From the NCBI GenBank assembly GCA_945912145.1, contig CAMEBF010000001.1, positions 62,001 through 126,000 on the forward strand: DNA of 64,000 nucleotides, given 5' to 3'. A program made the translations under genes and the position numbers. The notes under the pieces are model-generated. The model saw only the letters and a program-made list of their open reading frames with translations. It was not told the origin of the DNA and made no database searches. Shown in pieces: positions 16,312 through 57,953 of this stretch (position 1 is the first letter of the stretch; each line of letters opens with the position of its first letter). Source of the DNA: an uncultured Clostridia bacterium. Its GTDB lineage: Bacteria; Bacillota; Clostridia; Oscillospirales; Acutalibacteraceae.

Positions 16312-17325
16312 TCACAGCGATTGATCCACCTTGATAAATAATTGTGAATAGAAAGGTCCCTTGACCTCTTTTTTGAGAATGAGAGCGTCAAACAGCGTTC
16401 TGATCGCCTGATAGCCCTGCTCATACGGCTGCTGACAAATGGTCGCTAAAACGCTTCCACTGCGAAGCGCTTCACAGGTTACCGGCGTATCGTCAAAGGT
16501 GCATACGCGCACAACGTGCGAATGCTCCCGGATGGCGCGTAAGGTGCCGCTGAGGCCGGCCGCCGTGATGAAAACGAAGTCCGTTTCCGGGTGCTCTACC
16601 AGCGCGTTTTTCATCACACGATAGGCGATATCGTCGTCGTCATCGTTTTCCGCGAGACCGACGACATGAATGCCGGGATATTCGTTTCGCAGCACGTCGC
16701 AAAGTCCCTCGACGCGCTGTTCATGTCCTTCGTGCCTCGCGCTGCCTGTCACAAGAAACAGATTGGCGTGTCCCTGCGTCAACAGCCCCGTCAGCCGTCC
16801 CGCGACCCGACCGCTCTTGCGGTAATCGCAGCCGACATAGACGGCGTCTGAAAGAGAATTGAGCGAGCTCGAGAGCATGACAATGCGCACGCCTTTTTCT
16901 TCAAACTGCTTGAGCTTTTCTTCAACGGCAGGGTGACAGATCGGCGTGAGAATGAGCTGCGCCGTGTCTTCGGGCAGGGCGTTCAACAGCCGCAGTAACG
17001 CTTCGGGATCATAGCCCTTGAATTCGGAAAGCGCAAGAGAGAAGCCGTAGCCGGCGTAGTCCTCGGCGGCGGCGAAAAGGCCTGCTTTCACATCATCGAA
17101 AAACGGATTGCCGACGCTGTTCAGCAGCACGGGAATCCGGATCGGTCTGCCGGAGTAGACCAAAGCCTTGCCGATGATGTTCGGCTTGTAATCGTATTTT
17201 TCGGCGATGGCGAGCACCTTTTTCTTGGTCTCTTCGCTGATGCCGGGACGGTTTTTCAGAGCTCTGTCCACCGTGCCGCGGCTCACGCCTGCCAATATCG
17301 CAATCTCTTTCGCCGTGATGCCCAT
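16312..17325 (-). CDS. LacI-family transcriptional regulator
   Basis: The 337-residue protein has an N-terminal LacI helix-turn-helix (ITAKEIAILAGVSRGTVDRA, residues 3-22) and a hinge (KPNIIGKALVYS). A periplasmic-binding-protein-like effector domain with PVLLNSVGNPFFDDV and a C-terminal CTFDDTPVTCEAL region follows. A GAGGAGG ribosome site 7-8 bases before the ATG at 17325 fixes the start. The ligand is presumably a sugar. The only gene-like sequence downstream on the strand is the decayed gene at 15793-16226, so its present target is unclear. Confidence 0.92.
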   Translation of the reverse strand: MGITAKEIAILAGVSRGTVDRALKNRPGISEETKKKVLAIAEKYDYKPNIIGKALVYSGRPIRIPVLLNSVGNPFFDDVKAGLFAAAEDYAGYGFSLALSEFKGYDPEALLRLLNALPEDTAQLILTPICHPAVEEKLKQFEEKGVRIVMLSSSLNSLSDAVYVGCDYRKSGRVAGRLTGLLTQGHANLFLVTGSARHEGHEQRVEGLCDVLRNEYPGIHVVGLAENDDDDDIAYRVMKNALVEHPETDFVFITAAGLSGTLRAIREHSHVVRVCTFDDTPVTCEALRSGSVLATICQQPYEQGYQAIRTLFDALILKKEVKGPFYSQLFIKVDQSL

Positions 17326-17523
17326 CGTCCGTCCTCCTCTTTTTTTGTCACGACCGTGCACGAGCACGGAATCCGGTTTCAGTATAAAAGATTGCGCTGC
17401 GTTTATCAAGCAGAATATTCCTTTTTTTGTATAGAAAAGTTGAGAAAATGATAAATGAATATTTTTGGATTGGCAGATTTTCTTAATTGATTTGATATTT
17501 TTTGTAATAAATTGACAAAACTA

Positions 17524-17552
17524 TTGAAAAACATTTCCACTCGTGCTATAAT
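17524..17552 (+). promoter_or_regulatory. Promoter for the kinase/peptide cassette
   Basis: TTGAAA (17524-17529) and TATAAT (17547-17552) are separated by 17 bp. The 17326-17653 gap is otherwise AT-rich with no gene. The leader to the first ATG at 17654 is about 95 bases. Confidence 0.75.
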
Positions 17553-17653
17553 AAACTTGAATATTACTGGGTTATTCTAAGCTGCAGACGGTTGTGCAAA
17601 CATGTGCATGGATAATCACAGGGATGTTTTTTTTTGAAAGTAAGGTCTCGCCT

Positions 17654-18412
17654 ATGAATATACGCTTTCGCATTGCGTTGGCAGGTGAGGTGATCGGCGT
17701 TTCGGCATCGCATGACGAGCTGCGCACCTTTTGCAAGGACTATCTGACTCAGGCGCCTGCGTCGTTTCAAGTGGTGATTACCCCATCTGATATCGATGCG
17801 GAGAGGGAGAAAGCCTGTCGGAAAGACGCTGCGGATGTCACGTGTTCCGATGCCTATCTGGAAACGCTTGCGTTGTATCGCAAAATCGCGGAGCGGCTCA
17901 TCGACCGCGACACGCTGCTGTTTCATGGCTCCTGCATCAGCGTGGACGGTGAAGCTTATTTGTTTACCGCCGGGAGCGGCACAGGCAAAAGCACCCACAC
18001 CGAGCTTTGGAAAAAGCAGTTCGGCAGCCGTGCCGTGATCGTAAACGATGATAAGCCGCTGCTGAAACTGGAAAAACAGGGCGTGACCGTTTACGGTACT
18101 CCGTGGGACGGTAAGCACCGCCGGAGCACGAATATGGCCTGTCCGCTGAAAGCGATCTGCATTTTAACGCGCAGCGAAGAAAACAGCATTCAGCGTATTG
18201 ATAAAAAAGCCGCATTGCCGATGCTCATTCAGCAGAGCTACCGTCCGGCAGATCCTGCCGCATTGTGCAAGACCCTTGCGTTGACGAACAGGCTGAGCGG
18301 CAGCGTTGCCCTGTACAAGCTGTGCTGCAATAGGGAACCCGAGGCCGCGCAGGTGGCCTATGAAGGGATGAACCGACACATGACACAGGGTGAATGCCTT
18401 GTTTCACGATAA
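17654..18412 (+). CDS. HPr-kinase-like P-loop protein of a peptide-modification cassette
   Basis: The 252-residue protein has a Walker A motif GSGTGKST (107-114), LLFHGSCISVDGEAYLF just before it, and NDDKPLLKL after it (131-139). That is the layout of HprK/SerK-like kinases found beside RiPP genes. It lacks the N-terminal domain of true HPr kinase. The ATG at 17654 has a TAAGG 8 bases upstream; an earlier ATG at 17594 is less likely. The next genes encode a 43-aa acidic peptide, a PqqD-like protein and a peptidase/nucleotidyltransferase fusion. Related kinases phosphorylate the C-terminus of paeninodin-type lasso peptides. Phosphorylation of the small peptide here is an inference. Confidence 0.8.
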   Translation: MNIRFRIALAGEVIGVSASHDELRTFCKDYLTQAPASFQVVITPSDIDAEREKACRKDAADVTCSDAYLETLALYRKIAERLIDRDTLLFHGSCISVDGEAYLFTAGSGTGKSTHTELWKKQFGSRAVIVNDDKPLLKLEKQGVTVYGTPWDGKHRRSTNMACPLKAICILTRSEENSIQRIDKKAALPMLIQQSYRPADPAALCKTLALTNRLSGSVALYKLCCNREPEAAQVAYEGMNRHMTQGECLVSR

Positions 18413-18441
18413 AAATTTTTAGGCATAGGAAGGTGTGCGAT

Positions 18442-18573
18442 ATGGAAAAATACGTAGAACCGGAAATGGAAATTATTGAGTTTGAGACTGAGGATGTCAT
18501 TACAACCAGCGGCCTCATCTGGGACCCCGACGGCGGATTCGGCTGGGAAGAAGAGGAAGAAGAACCGTGGTAA
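18442..18573 (+). CDS. Putative 43-aa ribosomal peptide precursor
   Basis: The short ORF has an AGGAAGG ribosome site 8 bases before its ATG and sits alone between the kinase and PqqD genes. The N-terminal half (MEKYVEPEMEIIEFETEDVI) looks like a leader. The second half starts TTSGLIWDPDGGFG and ends with six glutamates and PW, giving a very acidic C-terminus. It has no cysteine and one candidate phospho-acceptor cluster (Thr21, Thr22, Ser23). The leader-like motif EIIEFETEDVITTS fits recognition by a PqqD-type domain. Role as a substrate is inferred from size, position and neighbours; it could also be a small regulatory protein. Confidence 0.72.
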   Translation: MEKYVEPEMEIIEFETEDVITTSGLIWDPDGGFGWEEEEEEPW

Positions 18574-18603
18574 ACCGGACTTGATCCTAACGATCTAAAA
18601 GCG

Positions 18604-18619
18604 GGCTGCTCAGGCAGCC
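18604..18619 (+). terminator. Hairpin between peptide gene and PqqD gene
   Basis: GGCTGC and GCAGCC pair around a 4-base loop with no following T run. It looks like an mRNA-stabilising or partial-readthrough hairpin, common after precursor genes that need more copies than the enzymes. Confidence 0.5.
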
Positions 18620-18660
18620 TCCTGATGAATGTATCCCTTTCCGGAAAGGACGATTGATAA

Positions 18661-18918
18661 TTGAAACTGAAAGAGAATTTCGTCACGCAGGAGATGGACG
18701 GCGAGCAGATTATGGTAGCGGTCGACGGTGCTTTCGCAGGCATGGTGCGCAGCAACGCCACGGCGGCGTTCATTGTGGACTGCTTAAAAACGGAAACCAC
18801 CCCGGAGGCCGTTCTGGATGCCATGTGCCGCCAATACGATGCGCCCCGGGAGGTTATGGTTGTTGGCATAGAAAAAGTGCTGAATCAGCTGCGCGGGATC
18901 GGTGCCTTGGATGAGTAA
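18661..18918 (+). CDS. PqqD-family peptide-recognition protein
   Basis: The 85-residue protein begins at a TTG (KLKENFVTQEMDGEQIMVAV) and has the PqqD pattern of beta strands followed by a winged-helix (ATAAFIVDCLKTETTPEAVLDA and a C-terminal helix). PqqD-type domains bind leader peptides and present them to modifying enzymes. It ends 8 bases inside the next gene, so the two are translationally coupled. An AAGGA lies about 12 bases before the start. Its likely partner is the peptide at 18442-18573. Confidence 0.85.
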   Translation: MKLKENFVTQEMDGEQIMVAVDGAFAGMVRSNATAAFIVDCLKTETTPEAVLDAMCRQYDAPREVMVVGIEKVLNQLRGIGALDE

Positions 18919-20530
18919 ATCCAGCTTTGAGGAGGAAATTCAGCGAAAAGGCTATTTGCTTTACCGAAGTGAAGGCGACAGTATGCTGCCGCTGATCCGG
19001 CAGGGCAGGGACTTGGTGCTGATTGCGGCAAAACCGGAGGGACGGCTGAAAAAATATGATGTGCCCCTCTACAGGCGCGACAGTGGACAGTATGTTCTTC
19101 ACCGCATTCTGAAGGTGCGGGAAAATGATTATGTTCTCTGTGGGGATAATCGCCGGCACCGGGAAACCGGCATTTCGGACCGCCACATCATCGGTGTGCT
19201 GACGGCCGTGATTCGGGATGGCAAAGAACTCCCGACCACCGCCTTTCGTTACCGGCTGTATACGCATCTGTGGTGCGACCTGTTCTATGTGCGTGCCTTG
19301 CGGCTATGGTGCCGCGACAGCTGGGCACGAATCAGAAGAAAATGCTGCCGGAAACACAAAGCAGAGAACGGATGGGATCAAACAAGTGAACAGCTCATCT
19401 ATCTGATTTCCTGCGCGTTGAACGGCACGGAAGCGAATGCCGATTTCTTGCATGAGCCCGATCTTGCCGGTCTTTTTGTTCTTGCGCGGAAGCATTCCGT
19501 GGCGGCTATGGTTTGCATGGTGCTGGAAAAGACGGACGCATGGGAACAGGCTGAGCCGGCCGTTAAAAAGCGATGGACAGATGCGAAGAACAAGGCTGTC
19601 AGGAAAAGTATACTGCTTGCGGCGGACTGCCGGATTCTGATGGATGAAATGGAAAATGCGGGAATTTGGCATATGCCGCTAAAGGGAAGCGTTCTGAAAG
19701 ATTGGTACCCTCAATATGGAATGCGGGAAATGTCCGATATCGATATTCTCTTCGACGAAACAAAACGGGAACAGGTCAGGGAGATTTTCCTGCGGCATGA
19801 TTATGACGTGCGCGCTTTTCGCGAGAGCAATCACGATGTATATTGCAAGCCTCCCGTATATAATTTTGAAATGCACACATCTCTTCTTAACGAGAATTAT
19901 TGTAAGGAGCTCGGCGCGAAATATCAGGGAATCGCGCAAAAGCTTATCCCGGATGAGAACAAGAAGTTCCGTTTTCATTTTACCCCGGAAGACTTTTATA
20001 TTTATGCGATCATACACGCTTATAAACATTACAGCCTTAACGGCACCGGTGTTCGGTCGCTGGCCGATATCTATGTGATGAACCGAAAAATCGGGCCGTC
20101 AATGGACTGGGACTATGTGAAGAAAGAAACGGAAGCTCTCGGCATCGACACCTTTGAAAAGAACAGCCGGACTCTTGCTGAAAAAATCTTCAGCGATGTA
20201 CCGGTGTCGCAAATCTGTCTGACAGCAGAAGAACGGATCATGCTGCTATCCTGTATGGGAGCCGGAACATATGGCTCTTTTGAGAGCAGTATCAATAGCT
20301 CTCTGCGTTCCCTTCAGGCAGACAAAGAACCGATTACGGGCTTTACAAAGTTTCAGTACTGCATGGTAAGACTGTTTCCCGGACGGGAATGGTGCAAAAA
20401 TAACTATCCCTTTGTCTATCGGCATCCCTGTCTGCTTCCATTCTTTTGGATATGGAGATGGAGCAAAAAAATTCCCATGGGCAAAAAGAGAATACAGAAG
20501 GAGATATCGGCAGTCAGATCCTCCCGGTGA
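18911..20530 (+). CDS. Fusion: S26-type signal-peptidase-like domain + nucleotidyltransferase (NTP_transf_5)
   Basis: The 539-residue product joins two domains. Residues ~5-130 have the S24/S26 core: EGDSMLPLI (catalytic Ser24), LHRILKV (His64 where Sip-type enzymes have Lys, as in SipW/ER types) and VLCGDNR. No N-terminal membrane anchor precedes them. Residues ~155-530 match the uncharacterised nucleotidyltransferase family: MPLKGSVLKDWYPQYGMREM followed by SDIDILFDE, i.e. GS and DxD metal/NTP motifs. Start at ATG 18911 overlaps the PqqD gene; a GTG at 18902 is an alternative. In related loci these are separate genes. A role in cutting and nucleotide- or sugar-tagging the small peptide is inferred. 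A terminator follows at 20650. Confidence 0.8.
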   Translation: MSKSSFEEEIQRKGYLLYRSEGDSMLPLIRQGRDLVLIAAKPEGRLKKYDVPLYRRDSGQYVLHRILKVRENDYVLCGDNRRHRETGISDRHIIGVLTAVIRDGKELPTTAFRYRLYTHLWCDLFYVRALRLWCRDSWARIRRKCCRKHKAENGWDQTSEQLIYLISCALNGTEANADFLHEPDLAGLFVLARKHSVAAMVCMVLEKTDAWEQAEPAVKKRWTDAKNKAVRKSILLAADCRILMDEMENAGIWHMPLKGSVLKDWYPQYGMREMSDIDILFDETKREQVREIFLRHDYDVRAFRESNHDVYCKPPVYNFEMHTSLLNENYCKELGAKYQGIAQKLIPDENKKFRFHFTPEDFYIYAIIHAYKHYSLNGTGVRSLADIYVMNRKIGPSMDWDYVKKETEALGIDTFEKNSRTLAEKIFSDVPVSQICLTAEERIMLLSCMGAGTYGSFESSINSSLRSLQADKEPITGFTKFQYCMVRLFPGREWCKNNYPFVYRHPCLLPFFWIWRWSKKIPMGKKRIQKEISAVRSSR

Positions 20531-20649
20531 TGGAACGGTCATCGCTCTGTTCGGAACGAGAAGGATTCTGCTTCCGGTGCTCTGTAAAATTATGGTTAAA
20601 TAATAGGGGCAGGTTTACACATCCGGCTCCACTGATTTTAGAAAAACAG

Positions 20650-20692
20650 GCCTGTTGCAAAATGAAGATTTTGCGGCAGGCTCCATTTTTTT
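20650..20692 (+). terminator. Terminator of the kinase/peptide cassette
   Basis: GCCTGTTGCAAAAT pairs with ATTTTGCGGCAGGC around GAAG and is followed by a T-rich run (TCCATTTTTTT). It ends the cassette about 120 bases after the last stop codon. Confidence 0.85.
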
Positions 20693-56362: not shown

Positions 56363-56512
56363 ATGGAAAGAATCAAAACGCTTGATACCCGTAACCTTTG
56401 CGAGAGCGCGAAGAACGGCGGCTGCGGCGAATGCCAGACGTCCTGCCAGTCCGCTTGCAAGACGAGCTGCGGTATCGCCAATCAGCAGTGCGAAAACACC
56501 ACAAACGACTGA
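56363..56512 (+). CDS. SCIFF ranthipeptide precursor
   Basis: The 49-residue peptide carries the conserved core CGECQTSCQSACKTSC near its C-terminus, the six-cysteines-in-forty-five-residues family. It has seven Cys in all (13, 21, 24, 28, 32, 36, 43). GGGAGAT stands before the ATG. The radical SAM maturase next door introduces Cys-to-residue thioether links in characterised members. The family is near-universal in Clostridia; its biological role is unsettled. Confidence 0.97.
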   Translation: MERIKTLDTRNLCESAKNGGCGECQTSCQSACKTSCGIANQQCENTTND

Positions 56513-56528
56513 TTTTTACGGAACAAGG

Positions 56529-56554
56529 ATGCCGCTTTTTCGCGGCATTTTTTT
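56529..56554 (+). terminator. Attenuator between SCIFF and its maturase
   Basis: ATGCCGC/GCGGCAT stem with a T tract. Readthrough would give low maturase levels relative to peptide. Confidence 0.8.
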
Positions 56555-56570
56555 CTGTCACGGAGACTTT

Positions 56571-57953
56571 ATGATTCATCAATATAAACTGAACGGCTAC
56601 GCGATTGTGCTGGACACCTGTTCCGGCTCCGTTCACGCCGTGGACGACGTCGCGTATGACGTTATCGAACTGTATCAGCAGAAAAGCGGGGACGAGATCG
56701 TCGGTCAGATCCTCACAAAATATCAGGATAGGGAGGACGTCACCGAGCAGGACGTCCGTGACTGCATTGAGGACGTGAGAGCGCTCGAAAAGGCCGGAAA
56801 ACTCTTCACGCCGGATACCTTCGCGCCGAAAGCGGACACGTTCAAGGCGAAAAGCGGCAATGTCATCAAGGCACTTTGCCTGCATGTCGCGCATACCTGC
56901 AACCTCAACTGCGCCTATTGCTTCGCGAGTCAGGGTAAATATCACGGCGATAGAGGGCTGATGTCCTTTGAAGTCGGCAAGCGTGCGCTTGATTTCCTGG
57001 TTGAAAATTCGGGCAGCCGGACGAATCTCGAGGTCGATTTCTTCGGCGGCGAGCCGCTGATGAACTGGGACGTCGTCAAACAGCTTGTGGAATATGCGCG
57101 TTCGATAGAAGAGTCGGTGCACAAAAAATTCCGCTTCACGCTCACGACGAACGGCATGCTCATCGACGACGACGTGATCGATTTTGCCAACCGCGAGATG
57201 CATAATGTTGTGTTGAGTTTGGATGGCCGCAAAGAGATTCACGACCGTGTCCGCGTCGATTATGCCGGCAACGGAAGCTGGGAGAAAATCGTCCCGAAAT
57301 TTCAAAAACTGGTTAAAGAGCGCGGCGGTAAGAATTACTATATGCGCGGCACGTTCACGCATGCAAATCCGGATTTCACGAATGATATCAATGTGATGCT
57401 CGATCTGGGCTTTGATCAGCTCAGCATGGAGCCGGTGGTCTGTGCGCCCAACGATGAGGCGGCTCTGACGCAGGACGATCTTCCCATTGTGCTCGAACAG
57501 TACGAATTGCTTGCCAAAGATATGCTGAAACGCAAAAAAGAGGGAAAGCCCTACACCTTTTATCACTATATGATCGACCTGAAAGGCGGCCCGTGCATTT
57601 ATAAACGCATTTCAGGCTGCGGCTCGGGCACGGAGTATATGGCGGTCACGCCTTGGGGAGACTTGTATCCCTGTCACCAGTTTGTCGGCGAAGAGAAATT
57701 TAAGCTCGGCAACATCTGGGACGGCGTCCGGAACGATGCGACGCGTGAGGAATTCCGCAGCTGCAACGTCTACGCCAGACCCGAATGCCGTGACTGTTGG
57801 GCAAAGCTCTACTGCTCCGGCGGTTGCGCGGCAAACGCCTACCACGCGACAGGCTCGATCCGCGGAATCTATGAATACGGCTGCGAGCTGTTCAAAAAGC
57901 GCATGGAGTGCGCCATCATGCTTCAGGTTGCCGAGAGTCTGGAAAACGAATGA
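56571..57953 (+). CDS. scfB: SCIFF radical SAM maturase
   Basis: The 460-residue enzyme has an N-terminal peptide-binding region (~1-95), the radical SAM motif CNLNCAYC, DFFGGEPLMNWDV, and a C-terminal SPASM domain with Cys-rich GDLYPCHQF and CRDCWAKLYCSGGC. This is the normal length for the SCIFF maturase group. It forms thioether crosslinks in the peptide encoded 58 bp upstream. Its stop overlaps the next gene by 4 bases (ATGA). Confidence 0.96.
   Translation: MIHQYKLNGYAIVLDTCSGSVHAVDDVAYDVIELYQQKSGDEIVGQILTKYQDREDVTEQDVRDCIEDVRALEKAGKLFTPDTFAPKADTFKAKSGNVIKALCLHVAHTCNLNCAYCFASQGKYHGDRGLMSFEVGKRALDFLVENSGSRTNLEVDFFGGEPLMNWDVVKQLVEYARSIEESVHKKFRFTLTTNGMLIDDDVIDFANREMHNVVLSLDGRKEIHDRVRVDYAGNGSWEKIVPKFQKLVKERGGKNYYMRGTFTHANPDFTNDINVMLDLGFDQLSMEPVVCAPNDEAALTQDDLPIVLEQYELLAKDMLKRKKEGKPYTFYHYMIDLKGGPCIYKRISGCGSGTEYMAVTPWGDLYPCHQFVGEEKFKLGNIWDGVRNDATREEFRSCNVYARPECRDCWAKLYCSGGCAANAYHATGSIRGIYEYGCELFKKRMECAIMLQVAESLENE

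What the first reader, a model, noticed from the sequence alone, without database searches (positions are those of the whole stretch)
17524..20692. Self-contained cassette: HPr-kinase-like protein, 43-aa peptide, PqqD-like protein, S26 peptidase/nucleotidyltransferase fusion
One promoter and one terminator enclose four genes. They look like a ribosomal peptide system built from a kinase, a leader-binding protein, a protease domain and a nucleotidyltransferase, but with no radical SAM enzyme, cyclase, YcaO or transporter. Kinase and nucleotidyltransferase tailoring is known for some lasso peptides; here the lasso cyclase and its cysteine protease are absent. The peptide may therefore be phosphorylated, cut or tagged without being macrocyclised, or it may be a regulatory peptide. 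I am not aware of a characterised example of this gene set.
Basis: partly seen in the sequence, partly recalled or inferred. Interest (0 to 1): 0.78.

Follow-up and report, generated by a model that had tools for sequence, protein, structure and literature searches.

The report
Clostridial linear polyphosphorylated-peptide (LPP) operon
Four neighbouring genes make a small acidic peptide and the enzymes that probably phosphorylate it, cut off its leader and decorate it; this is a stripped-down clostridial version of a peptide family (LPP) first described in May 2026, and its relatives suggest what such peptides may be for.

Summary
The four genes, promoter and terminator are real. The cassette is an operon of the recently published Linear Polyphosphorylated Peptide type (LPP; Popov et al., PMC13381572): HprK-like kinase (LppK), precursor (LppA), discrete RRE (PqqD-like, LppB), and one protein fusing a SipW-like S26 leader peptidase (LppS) to an NTP_transf_5 nucleotidyltransferase (LppN). 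The genome has no lasso leader-peptidase domain. Differences from the published core: no MsbA-like exporter, LppS-LppN fusion, precursor after the kinase, a different leader motif (YxxPEMEIIEFxxEDVITTS), and loss of an otherwise invariant RRE aspartate (D to G69), so reduced function or early decay is possible. In 62 clostridial loci, kinase, RRE, peptidase and NT domain co-occur nearly all-or-none, usually with an exporter. Across 150 genomes of the family, precursor-like peptides occur only where the kinase occurs (30/30, p=5e-12). Most are unlinked to it and tend to follow a secreted surface-protein gene. That pairing is not mentioned in the LPP paper's main text and makes the unknown role of LPPs testable. 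Verdict: new variant of a known kind.

The parts
17524..17552 (+). extended -10 promoter TTGAAA-17-TATAAT
   Evidence: 11/12 match with TG before -10; 0 of 100 shuffles
17654..18412 (+). HprK/PEPCK-fold kinase (LppK-like), 252 aa; H91, K112, D132, D133 conserved
   Evidence: AF2 model pLDDT 95.6, matches PEPCK/HprK; H91, K112, D133 invariant and D132 nearly invariant in 60 homologues
18442..18573 (+). precursor peptide (LppA-like), 43 aa: MEKYVEPEMEIIEFETEDVITTSGLIWDPDGGFGWEEEEEEPW
   Evidence: 27-member family, invariant Y4, D18, S23
18508..18570 (+). predicted core SGLIWDPDGGFGWEEEEEEPW if cut between T22 and S23 (alternative cut after I20)
   Evidence: inference: I/V at -3 and T/A/S/G at -1 in 27/27 of A1, compared with F-x-T cut in LppA
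18661..18918 (+). discrete RRE / PqqD-like protein (LppB-like), TTG start; N32 kept, D69 position is G
   Evidence: PF05402 E=4e-11; profile hits TfuB1, TbiB1, LppB 9x8z; D to G69
18911..19315 (+). S26 SipW-type leader peptidase domain (LppS-like), S24/H64/D90, no N-terminal membrane helix evident
   Evidence: S24, H64 invariant and D90 nearly invariant in 20 homologues; LexA/SPase I fold
19379..20530 (+). NTP_transf_5 nucleotidyltransferase domain (LppN-like), fused in frame to the S26 domain
   Evidence: PF14907 E=6e-44; NT fold; N- and C-terminal domain positions
20649..20690 (+). intrinsic terminator, 15-bp stem plus T-run

Best explanation
The cassette is a minimal clostridial LPP operon. 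The PqqD-like RRE binds the YxxP leader of the 43-aa precursor. The HprK-like kinase adds one or more phosphates to the invariant Ser23. The S26 domain then removes the leader next to that serine (most likely T22|S23, otherwise after I20). The fused nucleotidyltransferase domain further substitutes the phosphoserine (nucleotidyl or sugar group). The product would be a linear, acidic, phosphorylated peptide of about 21 residues. Shown here: gene set, folds, active-site residues, co-conservation and precursor family. Inferred from the characterised Bacilli system: phosphorylation, cleavage and order of steps. Unknown: what the NT domain adds, how the peptide leaves the cell without the usual exporter, and its role.
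For: Same gene set as the experimentally studied lpp cluster: precursor, HprK kinase, RRE, SipW-like peptidase, NTP transferase. Peptidase Ser-His-Asp spacing 40/26 in the window against 39/25 in LppS. Kinase His-Lys-Asp-Asp residues present. The RRE profile reaches LppB 9x8z (E=0.02), with the proline-holding Asn conserved. Tyr rather than Trp in the leader motif, as LPP RREs prefer. No Transglut_core3 lasso leader peptidase in the genome. In 44 loci with more than 4 kb upstream, kinase/RRE/S26 are all present in 26, all absent in 12, mixed in 6. Peptide family found in 22 of 38 kinase loci and 1 of 24 others (p=1e-5), and by genome 30 of 30 with the kinase (p=5e-12). The genes fuse in several combinations elsewhere: S26-NT in L182 and L184, kinase-S26 in L127, L171, L181, L183.
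Against: The published leader consensus (YxxPxVLxHQxIxFETxxS, Px9Fx[T/A]) is not matched beyond YxxP and the small residue and serine near the cut. The RRE has G where 24/24 homologues have the Asp that holds the leader tyrosine. No exporter is present in the cassette. The cassette is missing from the other 10 genomes of the genus searched, and the nearest relatives by NT domain (L002, L009) carry broken or truncated kinases. RRE similarity to LppB is no stronger than to lasso B1 proteins.
Confidence: 0.8

Rival explanations
1. The cassette is a decaying LPP locus: after loss of the exporter by a deletion that fused S26 to NT, and of the RRE Asp, it no longer makes an exported product.
For: No exporter; fusion lies exactly where relatives have the ABC exporter; RRE D to G69 unique among 25; nearest NT relatives L002 and L009 degenerate; absent from the rest of the genus sampled.
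Against: All ORFs intact; kinase 0 of 30, S26 0 of 24 and fusion 1 of 60 deviations at constrained columns; one third of related loci also lack an adjacent exporter; S26-NT fusions recur independently; promoter and terminator intact.
Confidence: 0.25
2. The peptide is a companion (ligand, anchor or signal) of a cell-surface protein, not an antimicrobial; the window's copy has lost its partner or uses one elsewhere. This is compatible with the LPP chemistry and concerns the role.
For: In relatives the gene directly upstream of precursor genes is often a secreted protein (17 of 27 against 20% background, p=3e-6); most precursors are unlinked to the kinase (49 of 64); some loci encode membrane-anchored proteins whose C-termini resemble peptide cores.
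Against: No such partner next to the window cassette, and one conserved surface C-terminal domain not found in this genome; same-locus pairing of tether and core tails not significant (p=0.17).
Confidence: 0.35
3. A lasso peptide whose B2 and C enzymes are encoded elsewhere.
For: YxxP leader and kinase, RRE and NT shared with paeninodin-type lasso clusters.
Against: No Transglut_core3 protein in the genome; no conserved core Gly1 or ring Asp/Glu across the family; SipW-type peptidase instead; lasso PqqD models far below cut-off.
Confidence: 0.03

Closest known systems
Linear polyphosphorylated peptides (LPP), lpp cluster of Paenibacillus alginolyticus (PMC13381572, Nat Commun 2026)
   Same: HprK-like kinase, discrete RRE, SipW-like S26 leader peptidase, NTP transferase, YxxP-leader precursor with conserved Ser near the leader end, no cyclase
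   Different: Window lacks the MsbA-like exporter; S26 and NT are fused; precursor lies after the kinase; leader reads EMEIIEFxxEDVITTS instead of VLxHQxIxFETxxS; core 21 rather than 45 aa; RRE Asp70 equivalent is Gly
Paeninodin/pseudomycoidin-type phosphorylated lasso peptides
   Same: kinase, RRE and NTP_transf_5-type NT shared; kinase and NT modify Ser
   Different: no B2 peptidase or macrolactam cyclase; YxxP not WxxP; invariant Ser near the cleavage site, not the C-terminal residue
NCBIfam HprK-related / SynChlorMet kinases (TIGR04249, TIGR04352, TIGR04355)
   Same: weak kinase similarity, PqqD partner (recalled for these systems)
   Different: scores far below cut-offs; radical SAM partners of SynChlorMet absent in window

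Membership tests
LPP | HprK-like kinase in the cluster | tested here: met
   PEPCK/HprK fold and conserved H, K, D, D
LPP | discrete RRE (PqqD-like) | tested here: met
   PF05402 E=4e-11; profile hits 9x8z, 6jx3, 5v1u
LPP | RRE residues N33 and D70 (LppB numbering) | tested here: inconclusive
   N kept (N32), D replaced by G69 in the window; D in 24/24 relatives
LPP | archaeal/SipW-type SpI leader peptidase with Ser-His-Asp | tested here: met
   S24, H64, D90, spacing as LppS
LPP | uncharacterised NTP transferase | tested here: met
   PF14907 E=6e-44, fused to S26
LPP | MsbA-like exporter in the core cluster | tested here: not met
   absent in window; present in 20 of 30 related kinase loci
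LPP | precursor motif YxxPxVLxHQxIxFETxxS / Px9Fx[T/A] | tested here: inconclusive
   YxxP and conserved Ser met, middle of the motif different
LPP | RRE falls in the LPP clade of the RRE tree | not tested
   Bacilli LPP and lasso RRE sets were not held
LPP | Ser polyphosphorylation and RRE-dependent leader cleavage | not testable with these tools
   needs mass spectrometry
lasso peptide | B2 cysteine leader peptidase (Transglut_core3) | tested here: not met
   no hit in the genome, about 97% complete
lasso peptide | macrolactam cyclase (Asn synthetase-like) in the cluster | tested here: not met
   no such ORF in or beside the cassette; rest of genome not searched for it
lasso peptide | core with N-terminal Gly/Ala/Ser/Cys and acidic residue at 7-9 conserved | tested here: not met
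   cores variable after the invariant Ser

The most novel reading that the evidence does not exclude
In Clostridia, LPP peptides are companion peptides of surface proteins: many dispersed precursor genes, often directly behind a secreted protein gene, are matured in trans by one kinase/RRE/S26/NT set, and membrane-anchored proteins display core-like C-termini. The window carries the most compact form of the machinery, with peptidase and transferase fused.
Probability: 0.4. Interest if true: 0.75.

Novelty: new variant of a known kind. Interest (0 to 1): 0.5.

Why it matters
LPPs were described only in 2026, from Bacilli, with unknown role and an NTP transferase without detectable effect. The clostridial branch is common (kinase in 72 of 150 genomes of this family), has its own leader motif, and places precursors beside secreted surface proteins, which turns 'biological role unknown' into a testable pairing. 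The compact S26-NT fusion offers a single protein with which to find what LppN adds, and suggests that cleavage and substitution are coupled.

Tried and rejected
Lasso peptide with enzymes in trans (no B2 in the genome). Wrong-frame queries and a bad 'of' handle were repeated correctly. A second protein in this genome ending in the peptide's EEPW tail: none. The conserved surface C-terminal domain in this genome: none (empty result, no positive control). Same-locus matching of tether and core tails: not significant. The -3/-1 counts use a regular expression that forces the pattern, so only alignment A1 is cited for the cleavage argument (its seed search fixed I/V at -3 but not the residue at -1). 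One of six seed patterns lies in the S26 domain, so S26 co-occurrence there is partly selected; kinase, RRE and peptide were not. The stem-loop between peptide and PqqD genes is weak (z -1.7).

Full report
Observation. The four ORFs, the promoter and the terminator are as described. The promoter class (11/12 with extended -10) and a terminator stem of 15 pairs were each reached in 0 of 100 dinucleotide shuffles of the region. Translation starts fit the homologues: kinase ATG 17654, PqqD-like TTG 18661 (MKLKExF as in relatives), fusion ATG 18911.

Protein identities. HMM evidence for the kinase is weak (Pfam Hpr_kinase_C E=0.29, ScmC 2e-5), so it was modelled: pLDDT 95.6, best matches PEPCK and HprK. 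The His-Lys-Asp-Asp residues reported as catalytic in lasso kinases correspond to H91, K112, D132 and D133; H91, K112 and D133 are invariant and D132 nearly invariant in 60 homologues. The fusion protein (model pLDDT 93.7) combines an S24/S26 serine-peptidase fold (LexA, UmuD, SPase I) and a nucleotidyltransferase fold (LnuA, ANT(2'')); Foldseek probabilities are high but E-values no better than 5e-3. The peptidase has Ser24 and His64 invariant and Asp90 nearly invariant, the ER/SipW type, without an evident membrane anchor.

Related loci. The fusion protein was used to fetch 62 clostridial loci. Kinase, PqqD-like and S26 genes lie together just upstream of the NT gene: of 44 loci with more than 4 kb upstream, 26 have all three, 12 none, 6 a mixture. 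The usual order is precursor - (other ORFs) - kinase - RRE - S26 - ABC exporter - NT; the ~560-aa gene is an ABC_membrane + ABC_tran exporter, in 20 of 30 kinase loci. The precursor family has 27 aligned members with invariant Y4, D18 and S23 and a short, variable, acidic tail. It occurs in 22 of 38 kinase loci and 1 of 24 others (p=1e-5).

Identification. This is the core of the LPP family of Popov et al. 2026 (PMC13381572): precursor, HprK-like LppK that puts up to four phosphates on Ser3, RRE LppB, SipW-like LppS (S29/H68/D93) that cuts after T-1 only with LppB, MsbA-like LppD and NTP transferase LppN without detected effect. The window matches in kinase, RRE, peptidase (spacing S-H 40, H-D 26 against 39, 25) and NT. 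The RRE profile finds TfuB1, TbiB1 and LppB itself. I inferred the cleavage pattern [I/V]-x-[T/A]|S from the alignment; the published cut F-E-T|A-Q-S has the same hydrophobic-x-T/A form, though the spacing from the leader proline fits a cut after I20 (making the serine residue 3, as in LppA) slightly better. I put T22|S23 at about 65%.

Differences. The window has no exporter; its S26 and NT domains are one protein; the precursor gene follows the kinase; the leader between YxxP and the cut is different. Fusion recurs independently: S26-NT in L182 and L184, kinase-S26 in L127, L171, L181 and L183, which supports a common complex. The kinase closest in sequence among those fetched (L095, 65-66%) has the full set with exporter, radical SAM enzyme, two precursors and a surface protein. 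The fusion lies where relatives carry the exporter, so I infer that a deletion removed it and joined S26 to NT. The RRE of the window has Gly at the position of LppB Asp70, Asp in 24/24 relatives; D70A weakened binding in LppB, while the essential Asn is kept. Kinase, S26 and fusion show almost no deviation at constrained columns (0/30, 0/24, 1/60). The cassette is not found in the other 10 genomes of the genus searched. I read this as a functional but reduced, possibly recently altered locus, and give decay 25%.

Wider picture. Among 150 genomes of the family the kinase occurs in 72 and the precursor family in 30, all within those 72 (p=5e-12). 49 of 64 precursor-like peptides are more than 6 kb from any kinase, up to 8 per genome, so maturation in trans is likely. 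The same-strand gene directly upstream of a precursor is a secreted-like protein of at least 300 aa in 17 of 27 cases against 20% of background genes (p=3e-6; hydropathy rule of my own, not a signal-peptide predictor). Several loci also encode lipoproteins or membrane-anchored proteins with long disordered linkers ending in short tails such as IELPFVPxx, which resemble peptide cores of the same group (e.g. L095 core GAIELPIIPVK and anchored tail DVIELPIITV). Cores in loci with such proteins score higher against those tails than other cores, but same-locus pairing is not significant (p=0.17). The main text of the LPP paper mentions neither Clostridia, surface proteins nor radical SAM enzymes; its supplements could not be read. 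The window's genome has one precursor and no detected surface partner of the one type tested, so this role is inferred from relatives only.

NT domain. The homologue PsmN of pseudomycoidin is needed for one or two hexoses on the phosphorylated Ser, either directly or after nucleotidylation; LppN had no detectable effect in B. subtilis. What the window's domain adds remains open.

Noticed in passing
window 56364-57953 +: SCIFF-type Cys-rich peptide (MERIKTLDTRNLCESAKNGGCGECQTSCQSACKTSCGIANQQCENTTND) followed by a PqqD-domain radical SAM enzyme: an ordinary clostridial SCIFF/maturase pair (identified by recall of the family).
   Followed up: partly
L231-L250 and others: Unlinked LPP-like precursor genes directly downstream of large secreted surface-protein genes, up to 8 precursors per genome.
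   Followed up: partly
L011, L017, L030, L036, L037, L041, L047, L095, L101, L102-L106: Small anchored proteins with disordered linkers and core-like C-terminal tails (often xIELPFVPxx) in the LPP operons; in L041 and L101 with dockerin-like repeats.
   Followed up: partly
L043, L058, L095: LPP-like cassettes with precursors whose cores contain Cys; radical SAM enzymes lie in the L043 and L095 cassettes.
   Followed up: no
L182, L184, L127, L171, L181, L183: Independent gene fusions within the cassette (S26-NT; kinase-S26).
   Followed up: yes
L002, L009: Nearest relatives by NT domain have truncated or broken kinase (and joined exporter remnant in L002): decay or assembly error.
   Followed up: partly
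window genome C2:190048, C7:67118, C3:44885, C1:313405: Scattered second HprK-like kinase, PqqD-domain, NT and S26 homologues elsewhere in the genome, unlinked.
   Followed up: no
window 16312-17409 -: Divergent LacI-type regulator next to the cassette promoter; not conserved in related loci as far as seen.
   Followed up: no
window 18600-18625 +: Stem-loop between precursor and RRE genes that could favour precursor expression; folding z only -1.7.
   Followed up: partly
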